Positions 56,433-57,389 of a stretch of DNA of 64,000 nucleotides are shown here, piece by piece. Origin of the DNA: Batrachochytrium dendrobatidis JAM81 (lineage: Eukaryota; Chytridiomycota; Chytridiomycetes; Rhizophydiales); NCBI RefSeq assembly GCF_000203795.2, contig NW_006281101.1:1575279-1639278 (forward strand), given 5' to 3'. Below the pieces are notes generated by a model. That model was not told the DNA's origin, did no database searches, and worked only from the letters and a program-made list of their open reading frames with translations. How positions within the stretch are numbered: position 1 is the first letter of the stretch; each line of letters opens with the position of its first letter. The position numbers were made by a program, and so were the translations under genes.

Positions 56433-57098
56433 TTCAAATTACTTGAGTTGGATAGTTTAAAAATAGATGTGGACTATTACTATTATTGACAGTAAATTGT
56501 TTATGGTGGAGAGTTTTGGCTTTTACTGTCGTATTCACGCAACATTTGTATTTATATTGCAGTCGGGAATTTGTAATGGATAATCGTCAAATCATTGCAC
56601 TTTTGTATTACAGATTGACTTAATAAACACTCGACTTGTTAATCAACACAATATTTATTATGATGCACACAATCAATAGTTTTACATTAGAATGACTCAT
56701 TTCAGACCATTTCAGACTATATAGTAGTCATACATACAATCACCAGATTCATGCATTTCAATCCATATATTGAGGTCAACTGGTTTGATGTTGTCAATAC
56801 AACTTTATCAAGCAGTTCAAATGATAATATTGACCAGTCAATGTGGTGGAAATTATCATTTCATGAAACTGGTAGTTTATTATGCGTTTTGACATCTTTA
56901 TCTAGTGTTTCATTTTACGTGAATACGGCAGTAACTGTAAATGAGTAAACCAGATAAACGACCCATTACACGACAAGACAAGGTCGACAAGAGTCATATT
57001 GCAAACAAGGGTAACCAAGTCGTGCATTACAGTTGTATTTCATGTATTTAAAGTATATCAAACTAATACGCCATTTATTAAACCATCGTAAATCTGGT
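56433..57098 (+). repeat. Duplicate of 49914-50578 (chimera left arm)
   Basis: It matches 49914-50578 over about 665 bases, including the element (56523-56934), the MORN-type ATG and exon 1 with the same donor. The match stops after GTAAATC at about 57092-57098, where SAC1-like sequence starts. The arms share that 7-base string. Confidence 0.85.
56523..56934 (+). repeat. MITE-like inverted-repeat element, copy C
   Basis: Same ends as copy B (TTACTGTCGTATTCACG; right end inverted TTACTGCCGTATTCACG) and the same open frame from 56751. It arrived as part of the larger duplication rather than by an independent insertion, because the matching flanks extend well beyond both ends. Confidence 0.8.
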
Positions 57099-57389
57099 GT
57101 GTTTCAAGACCTGTCCAACTCGATTGTACGATACATCAAAAACAACTTTTTAGATGGATTTCGTCAAGATTCATACGACTTATTTCTTGGTAAATACCGA
57201 GTCGATGCATCTCGTCCATCACCGTTTTCAGATCAGAAAATCACTTTACATTTTATTTTAGCAGCAGCGTTGGCCATGTTTACTAGTTTTTGTATGTTGT
57301 ACATGGTACTTGTTGCTGGGAGTGTAATCACAACAAGGCTGGTTATGATGGATACTTTAGCATTTGTTCCATGGATAAAAGATGTTTAA
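56941..57389 (+). CDS. Chimeric MORN-exon-1 / SAC1-tail gene (putative new gene)
   Basis: Predicted exon 1 is 56941-57010 (23 codons plus one base), a copy of MORN exon 1 with its GTAACC donor. Exon 2 starts at 57109 after TTTCAAG and runs to the stop at 57387-57389. The base left from exon 1 plus AC gives Asp, and the reading frame then continues in the SAC1 frame: DLSNSIVRYIKNN, GKYRVDASRPSPFSDQ, then the first SAC1 membrane span. The product would have about 116 aa and be basic at the N-terminus, with one transmembrane helix near the C-terminus and no phosphatase loop. The acceptor is a SAC1 coding sequence now used as a splice site. Expression is not shown; it could be an unexpressed fragment. 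Confidence 0.55.
57092..57349 (+). repeat. Duplicate of SAC1 3' coding region (copy of about 55791-56048)
   Basis: About 258 bases match the last SAC1 exon. By eye there are about six base differences. Four near the front are synonymous third-position changes, and two at the end change Ala to Val and Gly to Arg. The match stops in the middle of the SAC1 membrane region, after which the frame ends within 40 bases. Confidence 0.85.

What the first reader, a model, noticed from the sequence alone, without database searches (positions are those of the whole stretch)
56433..57389. In-frame chimeric gene made from MORN exon 1 and the SAC1 tail
Sequence shows a MORN-locus segment (element, ATG, exon 1, donor, part of intron) joined to a SAC1 coding segment. 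The TTTCAAG just inside SAC1 acts as a 3' splice site. The single base left by exon 1 restores the SAC1 frame, giving about 116 residues with one membrane span and a stop. The native MORN acceptor (ATATCAAG|AC) lay at nearly the same distance from the junction. Birth of a new gene by duplication, promoter capture and splice-site gain is plausible.
Basis: partly seen in the sequence, partly recalled or inferred. Interest (0 to 1): 0.88.

Follow-up and report, generated by a model that had tools for sequence, protein, structure and literature searches.

The report
Fused MORN-SAC1 gene in frog chytrid
In the frog-killing chytrid fungus, a copied gene start (promoter region, first exon and part of an intron) was joined to a copied piece of a neighbouring gene so that splicing still works on paper and a small in-frame membrane protein is predicted; it is a genuine but known kind of gene-birth event, and whether it is expressed or does anything remains to be shown.

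Summary
Window 56432-57094 copies a MORN gene's 5' region (repeat, ATG, exon 1, most of intron 1). It is joined at a 7-nt microhomology to a copy of an internal SAC1 coding segment (57088-57347, SAC1 residues 488-567). The predicted intron 57011-57108 has exactly the native MORN length, 98 nt; both end in TCAAG. The 116-aa product is identical to an NCBI protein, BDV3_005194 of Batrachochytrium dendrobatidis, on a contig of different length, so an assembly artefact is very unlikely. I infer that gene set to be one predicted ab initio, so it does not prove a transcript.

MORN orthologues support exon 1 and the native CAAG acceptor; both parents are intact. The frame match is unremarkable: 1001 of 1866 SAC1 junction positions would also be in frame. 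A second in-frame acceptor at 57153 would give 101 aa. The product has no Pfam domain, lacks the SAC1 catalytic motif and keeps the first hydrophobic peak of SAC1's membrane region. Divergence hints at constraint near the start but cannot be separated from gene conversion.

Verdict: a real chimeric gene duplicate, probably spliceable; expression and function unproven. A new member of a known kind.

The parts
56432..57094 (+). Copy of the MORN gene's 5' region (source 49914-50577)
   Evidence: 11 mismatches in the first 190 nt, one 1-nt deletion, 3 mismatches in the next 473 nt
56523..56934 (+). MITE-like repeat with terminal inverted repeats, ending 6 nt before the start codon; near-identical copies at 50005-50417 (+) and 18587-18918 (-)
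   Evidence: end motif 498 forward + 473 reverse in the genome, control 0 and 0
56941..57010 (+). Exon 1: 23 codons plus 1 base, identical to MORN exon 1
   Evidence: N-terminus conserved in MORN orthologues P0125 and P0126
57011..57108 (+). Predicted intron, 98 nt, phase 1, donor GTAACC and acceptor TTTCAAG; same length as native MORN intron 50494-50591
   Evidence: implied by the NCBI protein P0001
57063..57067 (+). Branch-point-like CTAAT, 42 nt from the acceptor, as in native MORN
   Evidence: CTRAY consensus recalled; only 3 of the 10 parental introns contain it
57088..57094 (+). Junction microhomology GTAAATC shared by MORN intron 1 and SAC1
57088..57347 (+). Copy of an internal SAC1 coding segment (source 55788-56047), including the first hydrophobic peak
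   Evidence: matches SAC1 chain 4tu3_X residues 473-536
57109..57389 (+). Exon 2 coding part and stop: 80 SAC1-derived codons (counting the split one) and 13 new codons
57152..57153 (+). Alternative in-frame acceptor TTTTTAG, giving 101 residues
57348..57386 (+). Unique sequence recruited as the last 13 codons
   Evidence: only the self match in the genome (query 57348-57760)
57388..57393 (+). AATAAA overlapping the stop codon, possible poly(A) signal
   Evidence: AATAAA occurs 1.14 times per kb on this strand of the window
50424..51291 (+). Parent 1: intact MORN-repeat gene, 5 exons, 165 aa
   Evidence: same sequence as P0003 = BATDEDRAFT_23741 of strain JAM81
53810..56272 (+). Parent 2: intact SAC1 phosphoinositide phosphatase gene, 7 exons, 641 aa

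Best explanation
It is a DNA-level chimeric gene duplicate. SHOWN: a 0.66-kb copy of the MORN 5' region and a 0.26-kb copy of a SAC1 coding segment lie fused in direct orientation between SAC1 and FIG4, and share a 7-nt microhomology at the joint. SHOWN: the native donor and branch region are kept, and the SAC1 sequence puts TCAAG at exactly the position of the native MORN acceptor, so the predicted 98-nt intron keeps the SAC1 frame.

INFERRED: the joint arose by replication template switching, or by a tandem duplication of about 6 kb followed by microhomology-mediated deletion. INFERRED: the copied MORN upstream region drives a transcript that is spliced at 57010/57109 (or to 57154). INFERRED: this makes a small protein with a hydrophilic N-terminus and a C-terminal membrane anchor (one span, or possibly a hairpin), perhaps in the ER or Golgi, without phosphatase activity. 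Whether it has any function is open; I think more likely not (about 0.2 that it has).
For: Two-parent copy structure. Microhomology of 7 nt or more arises in 107 of 200,000 random junctions. Similar mean divergence of the two halves, 14 of 663 positions (2.1%; the 1-nt deletion left out) and 6 of 260 (2.3%), fits one event, though the first half is uneven within itself. Exact 116-aa match to BDV3_005194, 2 members on 2 contigs, longest 1,809,844 bases against 1,702,824 for the contig here. Native exon 1 and CAAG acceptor supported by orthologues. MORN and SAC1 homologues sit on contigs of equal length in Polyrhizophydium stewartii (805,177) and Entophlyctis helioformis (173,916), so the parents look like old neighbours. 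Hydropathy peak 2.2 over residues 73-91.
Against: No transcript evidence was available. The matching gene set appears to be ab initio (BRAKER3 esmode), and P0001 has only an NCBI source. AAG acceptors are the minority here: 1 of 10 introns built for the two parents, against 8 TAG and 1 CAG. The in-frame outcome is expected at 1001 of 1866 junction positions, and the open frame would survive 6 random hits with probability 0.76. The substitution pattern (4 synonymous, 2 replacement) does not reject a neutral copy with a constrained parent (P 0.11 to 0.25).
Confidence: 0.66

Rival explanations
1. A non-functional relic: the duplication is real, but the copy is silent or makes only noise transcripts, and the open frame is an accident that has not yet decayed. 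(This overlaps the best explanation: a spliced transcript without function counts in both.)
For: In-frame fusion expected at 1001 of 1866 junction positions; frame survival probability 0.76 after 6 hits; no Pfam domain; a neutral copy is not rejected in the SAC1 half (P 0.11 to 0.25; 2 or fewer replacements of 178 sites P 0.14 to 0.25).
Against: The promoter-proximal block is nearly unchanged: 3 of 473 positions against 11 of 190 further upstream, Fisher P 0.00013; 0 of 160 around the ATG, exon 1 and intron. With the upstream clock a neutral copy would show 3 or fewer changes with P 0.03, with the SAC1 synonymous clock P 0.02.
Confidence: 0.5
2. The copy is a selected, working new gene: a small C-terminally anchored membrane protein in the ER/Golgi that competes with SAC1 for membrane partners or marks a zoospore membrane.
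For: Low divergence near the start; both replacement changes lie at the C-terminal end of the SAC1 part, Ka about 0.011 against Ks 0.058 to 0.074; each of the first four AGs after the joint keeps the frame, seen at 7.8% of positions.
Against: The statistics are weak and were made after looking at the data; gene conversion between the MORN copies (and the third repeat copy) explains the low divergence as well; no expression data.
Confidence: 0.2
3. Alternative last exon of SAC1: a GTAAAT at 55788 in SAC1 exon 7 (phase 1) splices to the copied acceptor at 57108 and makes a SAC1 isoform with a shortened membrane region.
For: The motif is present and the phases fit.
Against: The intron would be 1321 nt, while the ten parental introns are 69-121 nt; SAC1 has its own AATAAA at 56347.
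Confidence: 0.03
4. Assembly artefact.
For: The copies are close to their parents and lie within 7 kb of them.
Against: The copy differs from its parents at 20 of 916 positions, plus one 1-nt deletion; the identical protein is annotated on a contig of another length, which I take to be the later nanopore/Hi-C assembly of strain JEL423 (PMC11797018).
Confidence: 0.02

Closest known systems
Chimeric gene duplicates as defined by Katju 2012 (PMC3449122, passages seen)
   Same: Built from partial copies of two donors, at least one genic; that paper says a duplication partly spanning two adjacent genes can make one at a stroke.
   Different: Here the two donor segments lie 5.2 kb apart, with the rest of MORN, a minus-strand open frame and the 5' part of SAC1 between them, so at least two joints or a later deletion are needed; the last 13 residues are recruited from unique flank, as in 'partial duplication with recruitment'.
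Schistosoma japonicum family with shared promoter and signal sequence (PMC3434034, abstract and outline seen)
   Same: A core promoter plus first coding part is spread by repeat-associated DNA duplication.
   Different: There many dispersed copies with mRNA and protein evidence; here one local copy without expression evidence.
SAC1 phosphoinositide phosphatase (PDB 4tu3, 3lwt)
   Same: Residues 24-103 are SAC1 residues 488-567, including the first hydrophobic peak.
   Different: The CX5R motif (residue 403 of SAC1; motif recalled) and most of the second hydrophobic peak are absent.
MORN-repeat protein BATDEDRAFT_23741
   Same: Same upstream region, start codon, exon 1 and intron 5' part.
   Different: No MORN repeat in the product.

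Membership tests
Chimeric gene duplicate (Katju 2012) | Derived from duplication of two or more donor sequences, at least one genic | tested here: met
   MORN and SAC1 donors found, both genic
Chimeric gene duplicate (Katju 2012) | Ancestral and derived copies told apart by outgroup structure | tested here: met
   Full-length SAC1 and MORN homologues occur in other chytrids; no second chimera among the 3 hits (itself, a SAC1-like metagenome fragment, the MORN parent), a search that needs shared 5-residue words
Chimeric gene duplicate (Katju 2012) | DNA-mediated rather than retroposed | tested here: met
   Upstream and intron sequence were copied
Functional protein-coding gene | Transcribed and spliced as predicted | not testable with these tools
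   No RNA data held; the matching annotation appears to be ab initio
Functional protein-coding gene | Purifying selection on the coding sequence of the copy | tested here: inconclusive
   4 synonymous, 2 replacement; P 0.11 to 0.25 under neutral copy and constrained parent
SAC1 phosphatase | SacI homology domain with CX5R catalytic motif | tested here: not met
   0 Pfam families at E 0.1; the motif lies at SAC1 residue 403, upstream of the copied segment
MORN-repeat protein | MORN repeats | tested here: not met
   0 Pfam families at E 0.1
Tail-anchored membrane protein (definition recalled) | Single membrane span near the C-terminus | tested here: inconclusive
   Hydropathy only: best 19-residue window 73-91 of 116, but windows stay at 1.5 or more up to start 89, so a hairpin is possible
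Tail-anchored membrane protein (definition recalled) | No signal peptide; post-translational membrane insertion | not tested
   The N-terminus is hydrophilic; no predictor was run
MITE (non-autonomous TIR element; definition recalled) | Short, terminal inverted repeats, many copies, no transposase | tested here: inconclusive
   About 412 nt with inverted ends of about 23 nt and 971 end motifs; no target-site duplication established

The most novel reading that the evidence does not exclude
A young gene of B. dendrobatidis in which microhomology between a MORN intron and SAC1 coding sequence placed a ready-made splice acceptor in register with the native one, so that promoter, start, splicing and frame all worked from the moment of fusion; the product is a selected, zoospore-expressed, C-terminally anchored membrane protein.
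Probability: 0.17. Interest if true: 0.6.

Novelty: new member of a known kind. Interest (0 to 1): 0.37.

Why it matters
It is a clean case of gene fusion with both parents within 7 kb, the joint readable to the base, and an explanation of how splicing could work at once: the joined sequences share GTAAATC and, at the same distance behind it, TCAAG. If expressed, it would let one test how often microhomology-mediated joints preserve splicing, and it would add a lineage-specific membrane protein to a wildlife pathogen. If silent, it shows how an ab initio gene set takes up a chimeric relic as a gene.

Tried and rejected
Assembly artefact: rejected on divergence and on the identical protein on another contig.

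Native MORN acceptor at the downstream CAAAACAG instead of ATATCAAG (my own first suspicion): rejected. The 9 residues that this would drop align with the B. salamandrivorans orthologue (6 of 9 identical), and the QxKTG part also with P. stewartii and E. helioformis; the model with ATATCAAG reproduces P0003.

C-to-T mutation of repeats as the source of the differences: by eye, 4 of the 6 SAC1 changes are C-to-T or G-to-A in the copy, but the MORN half is mixed; dropped without a formal test.

Remnants of a whole tandem duplicate beyond the copied SAC1 piece: local alignments of 57348-57640 with four neighbouring regions score below the best of 60 shuffles each, so the tandem-plus-one-deletion history is not shown.

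Absence of the protein from older gene sets as evidence against expression: not used. The RNA-seq update of the older set added no new genes (PMC5364385, passages), and no B. dendrobatidis SAC1 was listed in the searched length range either.

Low divergence as proof of selection: not claimed. Gene conversion explains it equally, region limits were chosen after seeing the data, and no correction for several tests was made.

Background paper searches gave leads only. No structure prediction was run: it would not decide expression or function.

Full report
WHERE IT IS. The window is G000:C15:1575279-1639278 of a 23.49-Mb genome in 33 contigs. The organism is Batrachochytrium dendrobatidis: the predicted 116-aa product is 100% identical over its whole length to an NCBI entry 'hypothetical protein BDV3_005194 [Batrachochytrium dendrobatidis]', and the MORN parent has the sequence of BATDEDRAFT_23741 of strain JAM81. 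Contig lengths here (C1 4,429,270; C15 1,702,824) fit the largest scaffold (4.4 Mb) and the scaffold N50 (1.70 Mb) given for the older JEL423 assembly in PMC11797018; that the window is this assembly is inference.

THE OBSERVATION. Two copied blocks lie fused between SAC1 (53810-56272, 641 aa) and FIG4. Two open frames of FIG4 match the Fig4 chain 7k1w_F at E 8e-27 and 4.5e-8. Block 1 is 56432-57094, from 49914-50577; block 2 is 57088-57347, from 55788-56047. In a genome-wide DNA search with 56433-57389, only the copy and its parents cover exon 1 or the SAC1 part; the other listed hits fall in the repeat (46 matches, 40 of 292 candidates scored, so a lower bound). A search with the SAC1 protein found the parent's exons, the copy (93% over residues 481-571) and matches of 41% or less elsewhere (12 matches). 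The stretch 57348-57760 matches nothing else.

THE JOINT. MORN intron 1 and SAC1 share GTAAATC at the joint; a run of 7 or more arises in 107 of 200,000 random MORN/SAC1 junctions. Behind it, at the same distance, both sequences carry TCAAG, so the predicted intron has exactly the native length, 98 nt, with the same donor and the same CTAAT 42 nt from the acceptor. The acceptor was therefore already present in SAC1 and brought into place by the joint. Behind it the copy has AC, as MORN does, where parental SAC1 has AT. This may be a point change or a trace of the joining process; it is unexplained.

IS THE NATIVE MODEL SOUND? I think so. MORN orthologues of P. stewartii (P0125) and E. helioformis (P0126) begin MSKxDKRPITR like exon 1, and B. 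salamandrivorans (P0124) keeps the residues just behind the CAAG acceptor. P0124 itself has another N-terminus in its gene model. The five-exon model built here gives the sequence of P0003. Of ten introns built for MORN and SAC1, eight end in TAG, one in CAG and one in AAG, the last being this MORN intron; CTRAY occurs in 3 of the 10. An AAG acceptor is thus unusual but native to this very intron.

FRAME. Exon 1 leaves one base, and the SAC1 frame is met at 57109. Taking the first AG after each of 1866 positions of the SAC1 coding sequence, 1001 would also be in frame, because 44 of its 99 AGs stand in that phase. The frame match is thus no evidence of selection. The next acceptor, TTTTTAG at 57153, is in the same phase and gives 101 aa; the first four AGs are all in phase, seen at 7.8% of positions. 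If the intron stays in, translation stops after 36 residues.

PRODUCT. 23 residues from MORN, 80 from SAC1 (residues 488-567, counting the split codon) and 13 new ones. There is no Pfam family at E 0.1. It matches SAC1 chain 4tu3_X (yeast, recalled) from residue 473 to 536 at E 1e-8. The CX5R motif stands at SAC1 residue 403, outside the copied part. In SAC1 the hydrophobic region covers window starts 530-567, with peaks at 537 and 553-554; the copy ends at residue 567. In the product the best window is residues 73-91, mean hydropathy 2.2, and windows stay at 1.5 or more up to start 89. One span is the simplest reading; a hairpin is not excluded. AATAAA overlaps the stop. Anchoring in the ER or Golgi is inference from the parent.

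AGE AND SELECTION. The SAC1 half has 4 synonymous and 2 replacement differences; Ks 0.058 to 0.074, Ka about 0.011, depending on the transition weight. If all changes were neutral, 2 or fewer replacements of 6 have P 0.026 to 0.061; with a constrained parent and a neutral copy, P 0.11 to 0.25. The MORN half is uneven: 11 of 190 upstream and 3 of 473 from the repeat to the joint (Fisher P 0.00013; 0.0018 if the ragged first 16 nt are left out), and 0 of 160 around ATG, exon 1 and intron. Under the upstream clock a neutral copy would show 3 or fewer of 473 with P 0.03, 0 of 160 with P 0.04, and 2 or fewer replacements with P 0.25. In the repeat, the copy agrees with the third repeat copy at three sites where the MORN parent differs. 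Both constraint and gene conversion can give this.

THE REPEAT. The element is about 412 nt with inverted ends (23 aligned bases with 3 mismatches in the chimera's copy). Its end motif occurs 498 times forward and 473 times reverse with at most one mismatch, while the reversed control occurs 0 times. It ends 6 nt before the ATG in parent and copy, so transcription of both must start in it or pass through it; that it is the promoter is not shown.

ANNOTATION AND PRINT. BDV3 proteins are, by inference from the name and from 'version 3', those of the nanopore/Hi-C JEL423 assembly; PMC11797018 states BRAKER3 with esmode, genome sequence only (passages; Results part 1 of 2 read). The older RNA-seq update dropped 150 genes and added none (PMC5364385, passages). 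P0001 has 2 members on 2 contigs; which strains they are is not shown. A search for 'BDV3' with the species name found 0 papers. 'Batrachochytrium' with 'chimeric gene' found 4 papers; by title and abstract start none treats this gene. The library holds open-licence papers only.

VERDICT. The sequence claim is right and in the intron length stronger than stated. The gene-birth claim stands at the level of a predicted gene. I put the fusion as such at about 0.97, transcription with splicing at about 0.5 to 0.6, and function at about 0.2; these are judgements, not computed.

Noticed in passing
50005-50417, 56523-56934, 18587-18918: Three copies of the TIR repeat in this window are 98-99% alike, while the other listed genomic matches of 60 nt or more are 87% identical or less: a local burst or local gene conversion.
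   Followed up: partly
53810-56272: No B. dendrobatidis SAC1 appears among the best 120 of 6325 hits, the best being a 66% identical B. salamandrivorans protein (only proteins of 0.55 to 1.75 times the length are candidates); SAC1 may be fused or split in published B. dendrobatidis gene sets.
   Followed up: no
53810-61381: SAC1 and FIG4, two SAC-family phosphatase genes, lie next to each other in the same orientation, with the chimera between them.
   Followed up: partly
57110: The copy has C where parental SAC1 has T, which makes the bases behind the acceptor equal to those of MORN (TCAAGAC); chance or a trace of the joining event.
   Followed up: no
56751-56948: A 65-codon ATG-initiated open frame runs through the repeat and its stop overlaps the chimera's start region; in the copy at 18435-18830 (-) the same frame is part of a 131-codon open frame.
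   Followed up: no
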